From Desulfofarcimen acetoxidans DSM 771 (GTDB lineage Bacteria; Bacillota; Desulfotomaculia; Desulfotomaculales; Desulfofarciminaceae): a DNA stretch of 64,000 bases. The position numbers were made by a program, and so were the translations under genes. The notes under the pieces are model-generated. The model ran no database searches, was not told where the DNA came from, and saw only the letters and a program-made list of their open reading frames with translations. Shown piece after piece: positions 45,357-60,873 of this stretch. The DNA lies in the NCBI RefSeq assembly GCF_000024205.1, contig NC_013216.1:806001-870000 (forward strand), given 5' to 3'. Each line of letters begins with the position of its first letter. Within the stretch, counting starts at the first letter, position 1.

Positions 45357-46481
45357 ATGCTCAATAAAATTGAACTGGCTGGTTATAAGTCAATTCATGA
45401 AATGGATCTTGAACTTCGCCCCTTAAATGTGTTGATCGGGGCGAATGGTGCTGGCAAGTCCAATTTTATTTCTTTTTTTAAGTTGCTTAATTACATCATG
45501 AGCGGTTATTTACAGGGATATGTCGGTGAATTAGGTGGAGCTGATTCTCTATTGTATTATGGTTCGAAACGCACACCGCAGCTTTCTGGGACATTATATT
45601 TCACTACAGATGCGGGCCAAAATATCTATCACTTACGTTTAGTAAGTGCTGCTCAGGATACTCTGTTGTTTGCAGATGAGGCTATCTCCTTTACTAAAAA
45701 AGGATACCCGGTAAATTCACTTGTATCGCTTGGTGTTGGGCATAAAGAGACAATGCTCTCAGAAAAAATTAATGATAATAGAATAAATGCAAAAGCCACG
45801 AAAGTTCTTAAAACAGCTAATATTATTAAGAATATTATGGATCGATGGCGTGTATATCATTTTCATGATACTTCGCCGCAAGCGAAAATAAAAAAGACAG
45901 GTTATATAGAAGACTGTAACTATTTGTGACATGATGCTGGTAATTTAGCCGTCTACCTTTACATGCTAAAGAAAACCAAAGAGCAATACTATCGTAGAAT
46001 AATATCTACCATCAGACTAATGGCTCCTTTTTTTGATGATTTTGAATTGGTTCCTTCTAAGTATAACCAGAATTATATTTTATTGAATTGGAAAGAGAGA
46101 GGTTCACATCCAGATTTAATTTTTGGGCCGCATCAATTATCAGATGGTACATTACGGATGATGGCCTTAGTTACATTATTGTTGCAGCCAGAATTGCCAA
46201 ATCTGATTATTATAGATGAACCGGAATTAGGGTTGCATCCTTATGCCATTACTGTTTTAGCTTCCTTGTTGCGCAGTGCTTCAGCAAAAACACAAATTAT
46301 TGTTTCCACGCAATCGGTAACATTAATTGATCAACTTGAATTGGATGACCTGATTGTAGTAGATCGTAAAGATAATCAATCTGTTTTTAAACGATTAGCA
46401 AGCCATGAATTTGAAGTTTGGCTTGAAGAATATAGTTTAGGTGAGCTATGGGAGAAGAATGTTTTAGGGGGAGGCCTTCAC
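45357..46481 (+). pseudogene. OLD/RecF-like AAA ATPase interrupted by a single in-frame stop
   Basis: MLNKIELAGYKSIHEMDLEL and Walker A GANGAGKSNF (residues 30-39) begin a SMC-like ATPase; the signature HQLSDGTLRMMAL, Walker B NLIIIDEPELGLHP and STQSVTLIDQL end it. The frame is continuous except for TGA 45927-45929, exactly where relatives have Arg in a LRHDAGNLA block; CGA to TGA is a one-base change. Ribosome site AAGGAGG is intact (45342-45348). Such ATPases pair with DUF4276 or TOPRIM proteins in presumed phage defence. An ATG at 45963 could restart translation. Confidence 0.85.
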
Positions 46482-46646
46482 GTGGTTAAACTAAATATAA
46501 TTGTTGAAGGCCATACCGAGGAAACTTTTGTTAGGGATATGTTATCACCACATTTATCAATGCACGACGTTTACGTTGGTGGTGTTAGGTGTGTGGAAAC
46601 CGGGAGAAAAAGAGGGAAAATCTATAGAGGTCGCATAACCAGTTAC
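46482..46646 (+). pseudogene. N-terminal fragment of a DUF4276 protein, cut by the IS200/IS605 element
   Basis: GTG 46482 begins VKLNIIVEGHTEETFVRD, followed by RCVETGRKRGKIYRG, typical of DUF4276, a TOPRIM-like family found next to OLD-like ATPases. It is fused in frame with the ATPase (no stop between). The coding sequence ends at 46646, where the element joins immediately after a TTAC target. Confidence 0.78.
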
Positions 46647-46765
46647 CGGAACGGCCCGTAAAGCCCCTGGCTTTAGCCATTGGGATATAAGGGCCATCGG
46701 GCGAAGCCCGATAATTATGCAATCTTGCTATTTAGTTATATAACTTTATGTTGTATAATAATATC

Positions 46766-46969
46766 ATGGAATATAAATCCAACAACAATGTAGTGTACTC
46801 ATGCAAATATCATGTAGTATGGTGTCCTAAATATCGTCGTAAAGTGCTAACCCAAGGTGTAGATGTTCGACTAAAGGAGTTGATATATCAGATTTGCAGC
46901 GAACATCAATCAGAAATCCTGGAGTTAGAAATTATTAAACAGTACATTGAGAACCAAAAGAAAGTATAA
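46766..46969 (+). pseudogene. tnpA: IS200/IS605 TnpA with an internal deletion
   Basis: 67 residues. The start MEYKSNNNVVYSCKYHVVWCP and the end KQYIENQKKV fit Y1 transposases of about 130 residues, but the middle ~60 residues are missing in frame. The lost part includes the HUH metal site; the catalytic Tyr in QYIENQ remains. It cannot cut DNA. The element can now move only with a TnpA supplied elsewhere. Confidence 0.82.
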
Positions 46970-47006
46970 GACACTAAATCTCTACATAGAGGGGAGGTGA
47001 AACCAA

Positions 47007-48329
47007 ATGTTTGCAACCCAAAAGAACCGTATTAAACATCTAACTAAAGAGCAATATGCTCTACTGCAAAACCTCTGCCGGTATGCCAAAAACCTGTACA
47101 ATGTGGCATTGTACAACATACGGCAGCACTACTTTGTCACCGGCAAGCTTCTAAGCTACGCCAAAAACTGTGCCCTGTGCAAAACCAACGAAAACTTTAA
47201 GATGCTGCAGGCCGGTGTTTCCCAGCAGATTATCCGGGTAGCTACCCAAAGTTTCAAAAGCTTTCTCGGATTGAAAAGGTTAGCAGCTAAAGGCCAGTAC
47301 CCGGCAGAGAAAGTCCGTATCCCACGCTACCTGAAAAAAGACGGCTACTTTCAACTGGTACTGTCAACCAACGCAATAACCATAAATGCCGGGTACCTGC
47401 AGCTGCCGTTATCAAACGTATTCAAAAAAGACCACCCGGAGGCCAGGGACATCCGGTTTCCGTTTCCCGAGCGATTAGATAAAACCAGTATTCGGGAGGT
47501 ACGCATCAATCCGGCTCATAAGGCCCACTTCTTTGAAGTGGAGTATATCTACCGTGACAAGCCAGTAGTGCTGCCTTCCCTGGATAGCAATCGCATCCTG
47601 GGCATAGATTTGGGTGTAGATAACCTGGCTGCCTGTGCATCCACCACCGGGCATGTCTTATTAATTGACGGCAAGCAACTCAAGGCCGCCAACCAGTGGT
47701 ATAACAAAGAAAGAGCCAGACTGCAGTCTATTAAAGATCTGCACAACATTAAGAGTGAAACCCACAAGCTGGCTGCCCTTGCCGTATCCCGGGAAAATTT
47801 TATCACCGACTACTTGCGGAAAGCTGCCAAACATATTGTAGAATTCAGTATCTCCCTGGAGATTGGCACCGTGGTAGTTGGTGTAAATAAGGAACAAAAG
47901 CAGGGAGTCAACATTGGCCACGTTAACAACCAGAACTTTGTACAAATCCCCCTCTGGAAGTTCCGGCGTGTTCTGAAAAACATCTGCGATAAGTACGGTA
48001 TCACCTATATTGAGGTAGAGGAAAGCTACACCAGTAAAGCCAGCTTCCTTGATAAGGATTTTTTGCCGGAGTACGATCCCGCGAACAAAAATGAATACAC
48101 CTTCAGCGGTAGACGGGTTAAGCGGGGGTTGTATCGAACAAAAAACGGTTGTACTATTCATGCCGACATCAATGGTGCAGCGAATATCATCCGCAAATAC
48201 CGGTTGGATGGGGATTTTTCTGTTCTGGATAAGGGTATATTCTTAAATCCCTACCGGGTACAGGTTCTAAATACGCCCCGTAAGAAACCACCGGTAGTCC
48301 AGAAAAAGAAAAGTAAGGCAGCGGCGTAA
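47007..48329 (+). CDS. tnpB: TnpB RNA-guided nuclease, RuvC site of the rearranged type
   Basis: 440 residues. The RuvC-like domain has Asp201 in GIDLGVDNLAA and Asp387 in HADINGAANI. The usual second acid (E of VVxED) is absent: the strand reads TVVVGVNKEQKQG. Instead Glu residues occur at 336-339 in IEVEESYTSKASF. No CxxC zinc finger is present between them. This matches the rearranged catalytic site reported for a TnpB subset related to Fanzor. ATG 47007 follows GGGGAGG. It should use the RNA made from the element's right end as guide. Confidence 0.86.
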   Translation: MFATQKNRIKHLTKEQYALLQNLCRYAKNLYNVALYNIRQHYFVTGKLLSYAKNCALCKTNENFKMLQAGVSQQIIRVATQSFKSFLGLKRLAAKGQYPAEKVRIPRYLKKDGYFQLVLSTNAITINAGYLQLPLSNVFKKDHPEARDIRFPFPERLDKTSIREVRINPAHKAHFFEVEYIYRDKPVVLPSLDSNRILGIDLGVDNLAACASTTGHVLLIDGKQLKAANQWYNKERARLQSIKDLHNIKSETHKLAALAVSRENFITDYLRKAAKHIVEFSISLEIGTVVVGVNKEQKQGVNIGHVNNQNFVQIPLWKFRRVLKNICDKYGITYIEVEESYTSKASFLDKDFLPEYDPANKNEYTFSGRRVKRGLYRTKNGCTIHADINGAANIIRKYRLDGDFSVLDKGIFLNPYRVQVLNTPRKKPPVVQKKKSKAAA

Positions 48330-48409
48330 GCGACTGCTTAGAGGTGATTGTATTGCCCTCGGGGTTCGACCCCGGAATCGCCTGGCTTTAGCCATGGGGA
48401 GAATGTCAA
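48330..48409 (+). ncRNA. Right end of the IS element, likely 3' part of the omegaRNA
   Basis: Contains the hairpin CGGGGTTCGACCCCGG (about 48360-48375) and the end hairpin TGGCTTTAGCCA, ending at TCAA 48409. In related elements this stretch plus the tnpB 3' end is the scaffold RNA, and the flanking bases act as guide. Confidence 0.55.
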
Positions 48410-48815
48410 GCAACTATTTTGATGAGGTAGGAAATGTAGACTATAACTTTCAGCGCTTTGAGTATAACGATGATTATGAAACAATAATGAAAATATATCG
48501 GAAGTGGTCAGAAAAAGACGATACAATAGCCATGAACAGAGAAACGAACTGGCAAAACTTATGCTGCCTTTGGGGTAGTACCACAGACCTGGTGTTATCC
48601 GGCAATTATCAAGCATTATATGAATTTCTACAGCTAAGACTCTGTGAAAGAGCAGAGTGGAAATTAGACAACTGGCTAATAAATTTAAATATATACTGGC
48701 AGAAATTATGCCGGTTATATTTAAAGAATTAAACTGTGAAGGTGATGAATTAGGCTATTGTCCAGATATTCACGGCTCATGTGGTAAACATATGGTAAAT
48801 CAGAAAGTGGGTTAG
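48410..48815 (+). pseudogene. Frameshifted fragment of a ThyX-like (flavin-dependent thymidylate synthase) gene
   Basis: The first frame gives STTDLVLSGNYQALYEFLQLRLCERAEW, matching the ThyX LRxCxRAQWE region. After a one-base shift near 48668 it continues RQLANKFKYILAEIMPVIFKELN, then CPDIHGSCGK, to TAG 48813-48815. The N-terminal half is gone and the left edge is the IS element. The RHR-type FAD motif is not visible. Confidence 0.65.
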
Positions 48816-49830: not shown

Positions 49831-51885
49831 CCCACGTTCCGCATCTAGCATATACAAACACAAGCAATTTTGCTTTAGGCCGATAAATTTACTTTTATTA
49901 ACATGACATATTATTGAATTTGCACTTTTTATACCTCACTATTGAACTTTATATTTACATTGTAATAAATGTAAAACACCTTAATGTTTTTAATGAACAA
50001 ATTTAACATTTTAGGGTGAGTAGTTATGGGCTTATGATACTATAGATAATTCTTTTAGGTATATCGACTCATCAAATCCTGTCAATCGGATTATTTCTAA
50101 TTGTTGTTTGCTTGTTTTGGTTGGTAGATACCTCTCTCTTCTTCCTAATTTACGGGTAATATGAATTATTGTAAAGTTCGTCATCTCTTGCAAAATCAAC
50201 ATTCCTGTTGGTTGTTTAACTTTTGAACGATAGCTTAATTGAAGGACTTTCCCTTCTGCGGCTAGATTTTGTCTAACTCTACGTTCCATAAGTGCATAAA
50301 TTAACATGGTTATCAAGAATATATATCCAAGTGCTTTTACTCTTGACGGCTTTTTCAAAAAGACTTGACCTAATATTGCGGGGTTTTTTAGAAAGCGAAA
50401 GCGCATTTCCACTGTGTTTTGTTCTTTGTAATGCCGAAGGATTGTTTCTGCTGTATTTTCCCTTGGATTTTTTAAATTGGTGATCAGTACAAATGTTGAT
50501 GCCCTTTCTTTTGCCATTTGCCAGGCCGTTTCATCCATTACACTAACTATAGCCTTTATGCGATAAACTATTTTTATGGGGGACTTTTCTTTTGTTTTGG
50601 GGCGCCCTACACCTTTTTTTTCTTCAGCAATTACTTCTGCATCTAAATGGTAGAACTGTCCGTCCTGTTTCTTTTTCATATGTCTTAAGTACGAGATGGC
50701 ATCTTTTTCGCAAGCAAATTCTTGTTTACCAATTTCTTTACAGATTTTTTCTAGTTTTTTCTGTTCATTCTCAGCAGTACGCTTCAATGTTTTTTCTTTC
50801 TTTTGATCAAGATTTGATGAATGTACGATAATAAACCGGTAACGACGGTCGCCCAATTTCACTTTTATGGACTGAAGCTTATATACAGCAGCGTTTTTAT
50901 CCGGCAATATATTCTCTATTTCTTGCCACTTATCTTGGCGAAAGGCCCAATCTTTAAGTGACGGTACTATTCCAAATGTCTCAGGAATTCGGGATATGAA
51001 GCGAATGTTTTTCTTGGCTAAATGTTTTAGGTTATCTATGGTAACCAGTTTTGAGTCAGCTACGTATATGGTTTCTGGACTATTAAGTGATTTTAACATT
51101 TCCGGCAATTGTTCGATTATTTGTTGATTCCATTTCACATCGTTTAAGTTGCCATCGTTTATTGTTCCCATAAGAGGTATTCCTTCGGGAGTTACTACTG
51201 CACCAGCTACTATCTGCTTGCAGTCCCGATGGCCGTCTTTGTTAAATCCTCGAACTATGTTTAATGTCTCCGACGAAGCATTGGCATAATCTCCATAAAC
51301 AGTAATGGATGTAGTATCACCATGTGCTAAATCTACTCTAAAACGGTGTTTTAAATGTGCTTGTAAAACTATGTTAGAATACAAATGGTCTAGATTTGAT
51401 TCAGCTAATCGATCCAATGTATTTCCTAAAGCATCGTCGTTGAAATCAGTTGCTTGTACCGTTGGACCAAATAATGCTTCTACGTCCATATCTTTAAAAA
51501 ATTCAGATACTCGGTACAAAGGTTTTCGGTCTGTCAATATGTTTATAATCATAGCTTCTACATAAAGGCCTGGTGAATTATTACATTGTTTTTCATCCCA
51601 GATTACCTGATTGTTAATGATTTGTACTAAATTTATTTCTCGGGTAAGTGCAGCTATTATTGCGCTGGGCCCCACCTGTAAGCTATTAATATTTTGTAGT
51701 ATTTGGTTTTCCATTTACTTACCCTCCTAATCTATTAAGGAGGCATTTGACATCATTGCTTGTTTCTCCTGCAAAAAAACATCTATTACCATTGCATTTT
51801 TCAACAAAAAATATTTAAATTTCAGCCTAAGTTTATCTGTTTGTAATAATTATTGATTTATTTCCTTAAGGGTACGGAATGTGGG
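49831..51885 (-). mobile_element. Complete IS1634-type insertion sequence (2055 bp)
   Basis: Ends: CCCACGTTCCGCA (49831-49843) and, inverted, CCCACATTCCGTA (51873-51885), 11 of 13 matching. It is flanked by the direct repeat TTATTA (49825-49830 and 51886-51891), a 6-bp target duplication. One long transposase gene lies inside. Intact ends and target copies suggest recent insertion. Confidence 0.9.
50032..51714 (-). CDS. IS1634-family (DDE) transposase
   Basis: 560 residues. The N-terminus (LQVGPSAIIAALTREINL) is the DUF4277-like domain of this group. The DDE triad is visible as Asp in LAHGDTTS (about 155), Asp in YVADSKL (about 219) and Glu in KEQNTVEMRFRFLK (about 435). ATG 51714 follows GGAGGGTAAG. 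The frame is full length, so the element may be active. Confidence 0.92.
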   Translation of the reverse strand: MENQILQNINSLQVGPSAIIAALTREINLVQIINNQVIWDEKQCNNSPGLYVEAMIINILTDRKPLYRVSEFFKDMDVEALFGPTVQATDFNDDALGNTLDRLAESNLDHLYSNIVLQAHLKHRFRVDLAHGDTTSITVYGDYANASSETLNIVRGFNKDGHRDCKQIVAGAVVTPEGIPLMGTINDGNLNDVKWNQQIIEQLPEMLKSLNSPETIYVADSKLVTIDNLKHLAKKNIRFISRIPETFGIVPSLKDWAFRQDKWQEIENILPDKNAAVYKLQSIKVKLGDRRYRFIIVHSSNLDQKKEKTLKRTAENEQKKLEKICKEIGKQEFACEKDAISYLRHMKKKQDGQFYHLDAEVIAEEKKGVGRPKTKEKSPIKIVYRIKAIVSVMDETAWQMAKERASTFVLITNLKNPRENTAETILRHYKEQNTVEMRFRFLKNPAILGQVFLKKPSRVKALGYIFLITMLIYALMERRVRQNLAAEGKVLQLSYRSKVKQPTGMLILQEMTNFTIIHITRKLGRRERYLPTKTSKQQLEIIRLTGFDESIYLKELSIVS

Positions 51886-57950: not shown

Positions 57951-58111
57951 AATGATAGCCTCCTCTTATGGTTATTTAATAATTTATACGGATTATGAGG
58001 CTGTTTTGAGGGTATTGGAGTCTGCAGGAGGACGATATAACTGTTACTAGAAAACTAAATTAATATCAAAAAACCTGCCATAATATGATATAATTGGGGC
58101 AGGTGATTAGG

Positions 58112-58780
58112 ATGGAAAACCATATAAGTATTGGCAAAGCAGCTAAATATTTAGGGGTTAGTATTAATACTTTACGTGTTTGGGAAAAGAAAAAGATATT
58201 AGTTCCAGAAAGAACTCCTACTGGCCATCGCCGCTATAAAATGTCCCAAGTAGAATCCTTTGAGGGCAAAAAATATAGCCGAATTCAAAATACCGTATTT
58301 CTCTACGCCAGGGTATCTACACAAAAACAGGCTGATGCCGGGAATCTGGATCGACAAATAAGAAGGCTTACTGAATATGCATCAAATAACAAATATGCTA
58401 TTCAGGCTGTTTTTCGTGATATTGCCAATGGTTTAAATGAAAACCGTAAAGGTCTACAAAAGTTACTTAAGGCTGTAAAGGAGACTAATAACGCCTTAGT
58501 AATTATTGAGTATAAAGACCGTTTAGCACGGTTCGGTTATGCCTACTTGGAGAAATACATTAGCGACTTTGGCGGGCATATCGTAGTAATAGAAAAAAAA
58601 GACGTCGATGAACAGCAAGAGTTGGTAGAAGATTTAATTGCTGTTACAACGTCATTTTCTGCTCGTATATATGGAAAAAGTGGCGGCAGAGTAGCAAAAA
58701 AGCTGTCAAAGGTCATTGAAAGCGAGGTGACTGCCAGTGAAGACAACGGCGATGGGGATAATCCCGGAACTGACAGCTAA
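58112..58780 (+). CDS. tnpA: IS607-family serine transposase (TnpA)
   Basis: 222 residues. A MerR-like helix-turn-helix (ISIGKAAKYLGVSINTLRVW) is followed by a serine recombinase domain with FLYARVSTQKQ (catalytic Ser about residue 73) and the EYKDRLARFGY helix. IS607 enzymes insert without a fixed target. ATG 58112 follows AGGTGATTAGG; ATG-like starts at 58094 are less likely. Its end overlaps the tnpB start by 44 bases. Confidence 0.92.
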   Translation: MENHISIGKAAKYLGVSINTLRVWEKKKILVPERTPTGHRRYKMSQVESFEGKKYSRIQNTVFLYARVSTQKQADAGNLDRQIRRLTEYASNNKYAIQAVFRDIANGLNENRKGLQKLLKAVKETNNALVIIEYKDRLARFGYAYLEKYISDFGGHIVVIEKKDVDEQQELVEDLIAVTTSFSARIYGKSGGRVAKKLSKVIESEVTASEDNGDGDNPGTDS

Positions 58781-60195
58781 ACAGAAAGAATACATTGATA
58801 ACCTCATGGATCGTTACTGTGCCGCAGTTCGTTGGGCATTTAAAAGACTGCTGGACGGATGGAAAGTACAGGACATTCGTATAAACTGTACAAGGAAAGT
58901 TCAGACTTAACTCCCGGCAGGCTAACGATGCAGTATCTGATGCCCAGACCACAACCAAAAGCCAATATAAATTAGTGCAGATGCACTATGAAAACGCCAA
59001 AGCAAAGGTTGAATTTACAGAAAAGCGTATCGCCAAGGCTAAATCACCGGCTAAGATTGCCAAACTGCAAAAACGGTTAGAAAAGGAACAGCGTAAACTG
59101 GCCTTCTGGCAAAAGCACCTGGATAACAATACTTTTCCGCCTGTTGTATTCGGAGGAAAGAAGCTCTTTCAAGAACGCTGCAAAGGCAATATTACCAGAG
59201 AAGAGTGGCAGGAAGTCAGAAGTAACCGTTATCTGTCACGGGGAGATAAAACCAAAGGCGGCAACCTAAATACCCGCATATACGAAGGCCAAGACCAAAT
59301 CTATCTTGATATAGCTGCCGACCCGGTACAGAAAGGGAAATCCGTTCGGTATAACCGCATAACGGTGCCGATCTATTTAGCTCAAAAGCCATCGAAAAAA
59401 ACCGGCAAAATTAACGGTATCAACTACCGGCAAATGGTTTTGGATTATATTAAAACAGGCAGTGCCTATCAGGTAGAAATCCTCCGCAGAGACGGGAAAT
59501 ATTACGTCCATGTGAGTATTGAAGAAGAAGTTCCGATGCCATATAACCATAAGGGTGCGTTTGGTGTAGACACCAACCCGGACGGATTAGGCGTAACCCA
59601 GGTAGACTGTCTGGGGCAATACCGGGGCAGTGAATGGCTGGGTCAAGGCGAATGGACTTATGCCAGAACAAACCGGAGAGATAACCGGACCTGCGAAATG
59701 GCTAAGAAAGTGATCCTCCAGGCTAAAGAAAAAGGTTACGCCCTGGCGGTAGAGGACTTGAAGTTTAAAAATGACAAGTCCGTAATGGCCAAGTTTAAGC
59801 GAATGAGTCACAGTTTTGTCTGGTCGAAGTTTCTAAAAGCAGTTGACCGGAGTGCTGCCCGTGAGGAAGTGCCGATATTAAAGGTAAAACCGGCTTTTAC
59901 TTCGGTCATAGGCATCCTAAAATACCAGCACATGTACGGCATAGCTGTTCACGAAGCGGCAGGCTATGTCATAGCCCGGCGTGGCTTGGGCTTTGATCAT
60001 GAGAAGATACCCAAGATGTTGCTTGATAAACTGGTTAAAAAGAAACCTGAATTTAAACAAATGACAAATTGGAAACAATGGTCAGCAGTTAAAAAGTCTG
60101 TGCTGGCCAAGATTAAAAAAATCACGAAAAGGAAGAAGGTGAATAGCCTGGTTTCATGGCAGATTCACCGGAAAAATGTGTTAGGTATAGGTTAA
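58737..60195 (+). pseudogene. tnpB: IS607-associated TnpB with one frameshift, variant third acid
   Basis: GTG 58737 (GAGGTGA upstream) opens KTTAMGIIPELTAKQKEY; the frame breaks near 58885-58905 and continues FRLNSRQANDAVSDAQTT to the stop at 60195. The RuvC acids are Asp in GVDTNPDGLG and Glu in LAVEDLKF. Where most TnpBs have D-x-x-A-A, this family has VHEAAGYVIARRGLGF, so the third acid is Glu. About 480 residues if repaired. Translation from GTG 58975 could still make a 406-residue C-terminal product. Confidence 0.75.
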
Positions 60196-60440
60196 TCCCT
60201 TTGCTATAAATTTTGCGGGCGGCACAGTACACGCAGCGAAAGGCTGTTGCCGCAAGTCAGAACCCAGGCGGAGGTAACACCTTCTCCGGTTAGTACGCTC
60301 GCTTTAAGCAGCGGCGGGGAACTCTTTTAGAGGAGACCACCCGGAACATAGGCGAGAACCTATGGCCTAGCAGTTGAATCCTGTGACACTGCCACCCGTT
60401 TGTCGGACGGGTGAAAAAACTACTTGTAGGTTTTAGTAGG
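60196..60440 (+). ncRNA. Structured, GC-rich RNA region downstream of tnpB (probable omegaRNA)
   Basis: About 240 bases of far higher GC than the flanks. Hairpins include GGAGGTAACACCTTCTCC, CATAGG-CGAGAA-CCTATG and ACCCG-TTTGTCGGA-CGGGT. They precede a tandem GTAGGTTTTA repeat at about 60426-60446 that may mark the element's right end. TnpB guide scaffolds come from this position. Confidence 0.6.
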
Positions 60441-60462
60441 TTTTAGAAACCAGGTTTATTAT

Positions 60463-60873
60463 ATGTCCGCATTTGAACAAATCCAATCTAGTGCTGAAGA
60501 TGCTATTCTTGAACTCGAATCAGAAATAATTGACTTGGAAGAAAAAATTGAAGCCTATAAATTGCGTATTCAAAGCGCAAAAATTCAAATACAGGCATTA
60601 AAAAAGTTTCTTAGCCCGGACGAAAATAGTTCTGTGCTAAATGACGGTAATCTTCATGATATAGTCCTGCAAACAATAAGCGATTTTCGCGAACAATCTG
60701 TTCATTACAAAGACCTAACGGATATAATTGCTCAGAATGGTTATGAAATTTCCGGAAAACAACCGGAGAAAACGGTTTTAAACTGCCTTATGAAGTTGGC
60801 CAAGGCTGGTACGATTAAGAATGCAGGAAAAGGTTATTATAAGTCAATGATAGAGGAAGGACAAGCATTATAG
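60463..60873 (+). CDS. Coiled-coil + winged-helix (HARE-HTH-like) protein
   Basis: 136 residues. Residues 10-50 form an acidic coiled coil (ILELESEIIDLEEKIEAYK). Residues 60-130 look like a HARE-HTH winged helix: VLQTISDFREQSVHYKDLTD, then EKTVLNCLMKLAKAG and GYYKS. HARE-HTH domains occur in restriction, modification and RNA polymerase delta proteins. No strong ribosome site is seen before ATG 60463. It stands just after the IS607 right end. Function unknown. Confidence 0.6.
   Translation: MSAFEQIQSSAEDAILELESEIIDLEEKIEAYKLRIQSAKIQIQALKKFLSPDENSSVLNDGNLHDIVLQTISDFREQSVHYKDLTDIIAQNGYEISGKQPEKTVLNCLMKLAKAGTIKNAGKGYYKSMIEEGQAL

What the first reader, a model, noticed from the sequence alone, without database searches (positions are those of the whole stretch)
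47007..48409. TnpB with a rearranged RuvC catalytic site and no zinc finger
Asp201 and Asp387 are in place, the canonical Glu is missing, and a Glu cluster in IEVEESYTSK stands in for it. Family work places such TnpBs nearest to eukaryotic Fanzor nucleases. The gene is intact and the scaffold end and TTAC-type target are visible, so it may be active.
Basis: partly seen in the sequence, partly recalled or inferred. Interest (0 to 1): 0.62.

Follow-up and report, generated by a model that had tools for sequence, protein, structure and literature searches.

The report
Transposon nuclease with relocated catalytic glutamate
This is an intact RNA-guided DNA-cutting gene (TnpB) inside a small IS608-like jumping element; its odd active site and missing zinc finger are real but are shared by a large, already recognisable branch of TnpB proteins, so it is a good new example rather than a new kind of system.

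Summary
Window 47007-48329 encodes an intact 440-aa TnpB. Asp201 and Asp387 are in place, the canonical RuvC-II Glu is replaced by Gly292, and no C4 zinc finger is present. The stand-in narrows from a "Glu cluster" to one residue, Glu339: Glu in all 170 sequences of its group, at the published Ealt spacing (E-x6 to the lost first Cys, here Ser346), and aligned profile-to-profile with the Ealt of pro-Fanzors. Ealt and the canonical Glu never co-occur in 211 homologues. The whole element is 46643-48409. Its ends match IS608 (TTAC/AAAG left, GAAT/TCAA right), and a covarying guide-RNA scaffold ends at 48409. Six copies lie in the genome. Three, this one included, share a 189-bp deletion removing the HUH motif of tnpA, yet keep tnpB under purifying selection. 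The Fanzor link is only partly right: the protein is in the D-Phi-G Ealt branch, not the DPG pro-Fanzor branch, although one common Ealt clade is not rejected. Zinc-finger-less Ealt TnpBs are widespread in bacteria, archaea and phages. Verdict: most likely an active RNA-guided dsDNA nuclease using Asp201-Glu339-Asp387; a new member of a known kind.

The parts
46643..46646 (+). TTAC: left cleavage/target site (CL) and presumed TAM; retained in the left flank
   Evidence: present at the left boundary of all four full-length copies whose outside flanks differ, and of the Desulfotruncus relative L028; matches CL of IS608 (PMC5934647)
46660..46684 (+). left end: guide tetranucleotide AAAG (46660-46663) and imperfect palindrome IPL (46664-46684)
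   Evidence: same AAAG + hairpin order as IS608. Single-strand folding of the hairpin alone is not significant (z -0.7), of the 78-nt end z -3.1
46766..46969 (+). tnpA (Y1/IS200-type transposase) remnant, 67 codons, with a 189-bp in-frame internal deletion that removes the HUH motif; deletion joint at the 12-bp repeat GTTAGAAATTAT, 46924-46935
   Evidence: PF01797 4e-14 over model positions 2-53 only; full-length homologue in copy L013 is 130 aa, PF01797 1e-47; repeat twice in L013, once here
47007..48329 (+). tnpB, 440 aa, intact, RuvC triad proposed Asp201-Glu339-Asp387
   Evidence: NF040570 guided_TnpB E 1e-51, 176 bits against cut-off 100; PF01385 and PF07282; AlphaFold2 model pLDDT 88.5, matches Cas12f, ISDra2 TnpB and mimivirus Fanzor2 folds
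47607..47609 (+). codon of Asp201 (RuvC-I, D-L-G)
   Evidence: D in 211 of 211 homologues
47880..47882 (+). codon of Gly292, where canonical TnpBs carry the catalytic Glu
   Evidence: G in 168 and S in 2 of 170 Ealt homologues, never acidic
48021..48023 (+). codon of Glu339 (Ealt), just past the end of strand 333-338
   Evidence: E in 170 of 170 Ealt homologues; E-x6 spacing to the lost first Cys; aligned with pro-Fanzor Ealt
48042..48137 (+). replacement of the zinc-finger loop: SFLD...FSGRRVKRGLY (residues 346-377)
   Evidence: no CxxC here; F366, G368, R370, R373, Y376 invariant in 63 relatives
48165..48167 (+). codon of Asp387 (RuvC-III)
   Evidence: D in 209 of 211, gap in 2
48318..48409 (+). 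reRNA (omegaRNA) scaffold: stem P1 48318-48337 (overlaps the tnpB stop codon), stem P2 48343-48346/48354-48357 with invariant loop UUGUA, GC-rich hairpin about 48360-48374, IPR hairpin, candidate pseudoknot UUG 48348-48350 with CAA 48407-48409
   Evidence: 98.3% of cells paired, 4 pairs with compensatory change, 0 of 500 shuffles as high on the covariation score, slid versions 15-50%; expression not tested
48379..48409 (+). right end: IPR hairpin 48379-48399, guide tetranucleotide GAAT 48401-48404, cleavage site TCAA 48406-48409
   Evidence: identical end in all full-length copies and L014; matches GR/CR of IS608
48410..48429 (+). presumed guide segment of the reRNA (right flank, begins GCAACTATTTTGATGAGG)
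   Evidence: by the IS200/IS605 rule; no second TTAC + guide target in the genome beyond 3-mismatch matches

Best explanation
An IS608-type IS200/IS605 element whose tnpB makes an RNA-guided double-stranded DNA endonuclease. The tnpB transcript's 3' end (scaffold ending at TCAA, 48409) plus the flanking DNA acts as guide RNA; the nuclease binds TTAC + guide sequence and cuts with a two-metal RuvC site made of Asp201, the relocated Glu339 and Asp387. It cuts empty donor sites left after Y1 excision so that repair restores the element. Because this copy's TnpA lacks its HUH motif, mobility would need TnpA supplied by the full-length copy in the same genome. Shown: gene intact, residues conserved, ends and TTAC, reRNA covariation, selection on tnpB. 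Inferred: expression, cleavage, Glu339 as metal ligand, homing.
For: TnpB identity. Fold matches Cas12f, ISDra2 TnpB and Fanzor2 structures. Glu339 invariant and exclusive with the canonical Glu: 168 Ealt only, 40 Ecan only, 2 apparent doubles that are pattern noise, 1 truncated row. Profile alignment pairs D201/E339/D387 with pro-Fanzor D/Ealt/D; a pro-Fanzor of that set in turn matches solved mimivirus Fanzor2 9b0l with E 1.7e-30 and an Ealt in register. TTAC...TCAA ends on four copies, with a clean empty site when the flanks of L011 are joined at TTAC (response regulator start MKQVIIVEDD restored). reRNA covariation. dN/dS 0.10-0.19 between tnpB copies and 0.10 against L028, while the tnpA remnant has 5-6 nonsynonymous against 1 synonymous changed codon when L012 is compared with the other two deletion copies (1 and 0 between the window and L011).
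Against: No expression or cleavage data for this or any close relative was found in the library. The distance of Glu339 to Asp201/Asp387 could not be measured (model coordinates are not released by the tool). Low dN/dS may partly date from before the copies dispersed. The window copy has a G-G mismatch in the IPR stem (48380) and its two flanks come from different genes, so it may be a rearranged, no longer mobile copy. Part of the P1 covariation lies in coding sequence. Loss of the zinc finger could impair target-strand loading.
Confidence: 0.76

Rival explanations
1. Cleavage-deficient binder: loss of the canonical Glu and zinc finger makes this a nuclease-dead RNA-guided DNA-binding protein (TldR-like repressor).
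For: The canonical Glu and zinc finger are gone; nuclease-dead TnpB relatives are known (TldR, PMC13418256 abstract).
Against: Both Asp and one Glu remain strictly invariant across 170 diverse homologues, which is not expected of a dead site; Fanzors use the same Ealt and cut DNA (PMC10711439, PMC10432273); it stays in a transposon with intact ends.
Confidence: 0.1
2. Active nuclease, but another residue of the cluster (Glu336 or Glu338) or Glu296 provides the third ligand.
For: Glu336 is invariant in the 63 close relatives; E338 is usually acidic.
Against: Position 336 is E in only 109 of 211 (L, V, T, K elsewhere); 338 is T or N in some Ealt members; 296 is acidic in 29% of the Ealt group. 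Glu339 alone has the Ealt spacing and no exceptions.
Confidence: 0.08
3. Decaying remnant: tnpB is drifting and the copy is a fossil without function.
For: tnpA is deleted here; flanks are mismatched; two of six copies are 5'-truncated and one full-length copy has a stop at codon 297.
Against: Three deletion copies keep an open 440-codon tnpB with dN/dS 0.10-0.19 and an intact triad; the deletion derivative itself spread to at least three sites.
Confidence: 0.06

Closest known systems
D-Phi-G Ealt branch of TnpB (NAR 2023, PMC10711439)
   Same: DLG at RuvC-I, no canonical Glu, Glu at E-x6 before the position of the first zinc-finger Cys
   Different: No zinc finger at all; that paper's search expression requires four Cys and does not match this protein
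IS608 of Helicobacter pylori (PMC5934647)
   Same: TTAC, AAAG, hairpins, GAAT, TCAA in the same order; Y1 tnpA + tnpB
   Different: tnpA carries a HUH-removing deletion in this copy; IS608's own tnpB was not compared here
ISDra2 TnpB (8h1j, 8exa)
   Same: overall fold, reRNA scaffold at the right end, pseudoknot-type end
   Different: canonical Glu and CCCC zinc finger there; TTGAT instead of TTAC
Pro-Fanzor / Fanzor2 (e.g. 9b0l; cyanobacterial L280-L293 here)
   Same: relocated RuvC-II Glu at the same aligned column
   Different: DPG, zinc finger, long N-terminus, IS607 association; outside the window protein's clade in the free tree
TnpB of Helicobacter and Campylobacter IS607-type loci (L099, L107)
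   Same: Ealt, no zinc finger, about 30% identity
   Different: next to a serine recombinase instead of Y1 TnpA

Membership tests
TnpB RNA-guided endonuclease | match to the curated family model over its cut-off | tested here: met
   NF040570 176.4 bits against cut-off 100, residues 11-397
TnpB RNA-guided endonuclease | RuvC Asp-Glu-Asp triad | tested here: met
   Asp201, Glu339 (alternative position), Asp387 invariant; geometry not measured
TnpB RNA-guided endonuclease | reRNA scaffold at the right end of the element | tested here: met
   covarying stems and candidate pseudoknot to the TCAA end; RNA itself not observed
TnpB RNA-guided endonuclease | C4 zinc finger (part of the motif of Bao and Jurka 2013, PMC3627910; PMC10711439 says only that many members have it) | tested here: not met
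   no CxxC in residues 340-386; also absent in 162 sequences of the set, so it is treated as common, not defining
TnpB RNA-guided endonuclease | guided cleavage of TAM-flanked DNA | not testable with these tools
   needs an assay
Ealt TnpB clade | no Glu at the canonical RuvC-II place, Glu at E-x6 before zinc-finger Cys1 | tested here: met
   Gly292; Glu339-x6-Ser346; aligned with pro-Fanzor Ealt
Pro-Fanzor / Fanzor | DPG at RuvC-I | tested here: not met
   DLG
Pro-Fanzor / Fanzor | four-Cys zinc finger after Ealt | tested here: not met
   published expression does not match
Pro-Fanzor / Fanzor | groups with pro-Fanzors in a tree | tested here: not met
   free tree separates them; one larger clade of all Ealt proteins is not rejected, p-AU 0.67
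IS608-type IS200/IS605 element | TTAC/AAAG left end and GAAT/TCAA right end with subterminal hairpins, no target duplication | tested here: met
IS608-type IS200/IS605 element | functional Y1 TnpA (HUH + Tyr) | tested here: not met
   HUH deleted in this copy; complete in copy L013, so this copy is a non-autonomous derivative
TldR (nuclease-dead TnpB repressor) | loss of RuvC catalytic acids | tested here: not met
   triad kept in all three intact copies

The most novel reading that the evidence does not exclude
Zinc-finger-less Ealt TnpBs are a large, functionally distinct nuclease type: a relocated Glu plus a conserved segment (FSGxRxxRGLY) replacing the zinc finger gives guided dsDNA cutting with little collateral cleavage, showing that the Fanzor-type active site does not need the zinc finger and also works in prokaryotic IS608-like elements.
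Probability: 0.3. Interest if true: 0.55.

Novelty: new member of a known kind. Interest (0 to 1): 0.33.

Why it matters
It gives a compact, complete and multi-copy example of the relocated-glutamate active site without a zinc finger, with ends, target motif, guide-RNA scaffold and comparison copies all defined. That makes two questions testable: whether Ealt alone supports cleavage, and what the zinc finger is for. It also shows that the DPG + Ealt combination held to mark the Fanzor line recurs elsewhere, which bears on how Fanzor ancestry is read from motifs.

Tried and rejected
Sequence search of the Protein Data Bank with the window protein or its 63-member profile: no useful relative; only fold comparison worked. 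Viral contigs with the genome's second TnpB family as query: none. Same-family genome for an empty site: one held, no copy. Second intact target for the window's guide: only 3-mismatch matches, at about chance level by my own estimate. A general left-end finder over 76 loci gave mostly chance hits and was discarded. Glu296 and Glu336 as the third ligand: rejected on conservation. hhalign against canonical TnpBs shifts the RuvC-II strand by about four columns, so the Gly292 equivalence rests on the strand motif (TVVVG against VVVVE) and the absence of any conserved acid nearby, not on that pair. No paper describing zinc-finger-less Ealt TnpBs as a group, or testing one, was found in the held library; subscription papers are not held, so this is no proof of absence.

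Full report
Observation. The TnpB ORF at 47007-48329 is real, intact and preceded by a good ribosome-binding site. It matches the curated RNA-guided TnpB model well above cut-off and the Pfam OrfB_IS605 and TNB domains.

The element. Six copies lie in the 4.5-Mb genome. Comparing the four full-length copies fixes the element to 46643-48409: it begins TTACCGG and ends AATGTCAA, with unrelated sequence outside. Joining the flanks of copy L011 at a single TTAC restores the start of a response regulator gene (MKQVIIVEDD), which is what insertion 3' of TTAC without duplication predicts. Left end TTAC/AAAG/hairpin and right end hairpin/GAAT/TCAA are the CL/GL and GR/CR of IS608. The nearest relative, in Desulfotruncus arcticus (L028, 77% identical), has the same ends with TTAC and no tnpA between them.

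tnpA. Window, L011 and L012 share a 189-bp in-frame deletion between two copies of GTTAGAAATTAT. It removes the HUH motif; copy L013 keeps a complete Y1 TnpA but its tnpB has a stop at codon 297. Since the deletion form sits at three loci, it was most simply mobilised in trans (inference). After the deletion, tnpA changes are mostly nonsynonymous, with stops in L012, while tnpB stays at dN/dS 0.10-0.19; the tnpA numbers are small (7 codons at most).

Active site. In 211 homologues Asp201 is universal and Asp387 present in 209 (two gaps). 170 have Glu at 339, and of these none has an acid at 292; 40 canonical TnpBs have the usual Glu and mostly Arg or Pro at the 339 column. Two sequences flagged as having both (L039, L276) read TLIVGTN and NIIIGHN on inspection and do not. 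Profile alignment with cyanobacterial pro-Fanzors pairs D201, E339 and D387 with their D, Ealt and D; one of those pro-Fanzors matches solved mimivirus Fanzor2 with E 1.7e-30, Ealt in register. Published work places Ealt six residues before the zinc finger and reports a topologically distinct but consistent placement in models (PMC10711439). Here Ser346 takes the place of the first Cys. The AlphaFold2 model is confident (pLDDT 88.5) and puts strand 333-338 directly before Glu339; I could not measure distances.

Zinc finger. There is none. In place of it, residues 346-377 carry a conserved SFLD...FSGxRxxRGLY segment. The same absence is seen in 162 sequences of my set, from Bacillota, Cyanobacteria, Synergistota, Chloroflexota, Campylobacterota, archaea and phages.

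Guide RNA. The last about 92 nt align between own copies, L028 and Peptococcaceae CEB3 relatives. Two stems show compensatory change (P2 pair, alignment columns 51-60: C-G, G-U, G-C, U-A, U-G), 98.3% of cells pair, no shuffle reaches the covariation score, and slid versions collapse. The invariant P2 loop UUG can pair with the terminal CAA, in the manner of the pseudoknot shown necessary in ISXfa1; being invariant, that pairing has no covariation support. P1 overlaps the end of tnpB, so part of its pattern could be coding.

Relation to Fanzor. The trees put the window protein deep inside zinc-finger-less, mostly D-Phi-G, Ealt TnpBs. Pro-Fanzors fall outside, but forcing all Ealt proteins together gives a slightly better likelihood (8.1 units) that the free search missed, p-AU 0.67, so a common Ealt origin is compatible. 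No Fanzor sequences themselves were in the trees. The Fanzor fingerprint DPG + Ealt also occurs without zinc finger in L028, L019, L048, L177 and a Ligilactobacillus plasmid protein, and with zinc finger in a second TnpB family of this same genome that carries a Y1 tnpA (L126-L129). It is therefore less exclusive than stated in PMC10711439.

Mechanism. Most likely: the tnpB mRNA 3' end is processed to reRNA; TnpB cuts TTAC + guide DNA, the empty donor site, using Asp201-Glu339-Asp387; repair from a sister copy restores the element. Steps after protein and RNA anatomy are inferred from ISDra2, ISXfa1 and Fanzor work.

Verdict. Confirmed observation, interpretation partly right, ordinary membership in a large known superfamily branch, useful as a test case.

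Noticed in passing
G000:C1:207964-209031 and four or more other loci (L126-L131): A second TnpB family in the same genome has DPG + Ealt + four-Cys zinc finger, i.e. the published pro-Fanzor fingerprint, but with a Y1 tnpA (L127, L129) and outside the pro-Fanzor clade in the trees.
   Followed up: partly
L028, L019, L048, L177, L106: DPG + Ealt without zinc finger arises several times inside the zinc-finger-less clade.
   Followed up: partly
window 58094-60195: IS607-type recombinase gene followed by a TnpB-like gene (GVDTNPDG, VEDLKF) without zinc finger whose RuvC-III motif reads VHEAAGYVIARRG, apparently His where Asp is expected; about a dozen related copies in the genome.
   Followed up: partly
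window 60200-60500: GC-rich, probably structured sequence just after that TnpB-like gene; no Rfam family matches.
   Followed up: partly
window 46478-46643 and 48410-48732: The two flanks of the window copy come from different truncated genes (DUF4276-like left, ThyX-like right), so a deletion or recombination followed insertion.
   Followed up: partly
L020-L027 (Peptococcaceae bacterium CEB3): Many copies of a 57% identical TnpB element, some of which have lost most of tnpA while keeping tnpB, the same pattern as here.
   Followed up: partly
window 50032-51714: DDE transposase (DUF4277 + DDE_Tnp_1) on the minus strand.
   Followed up: no
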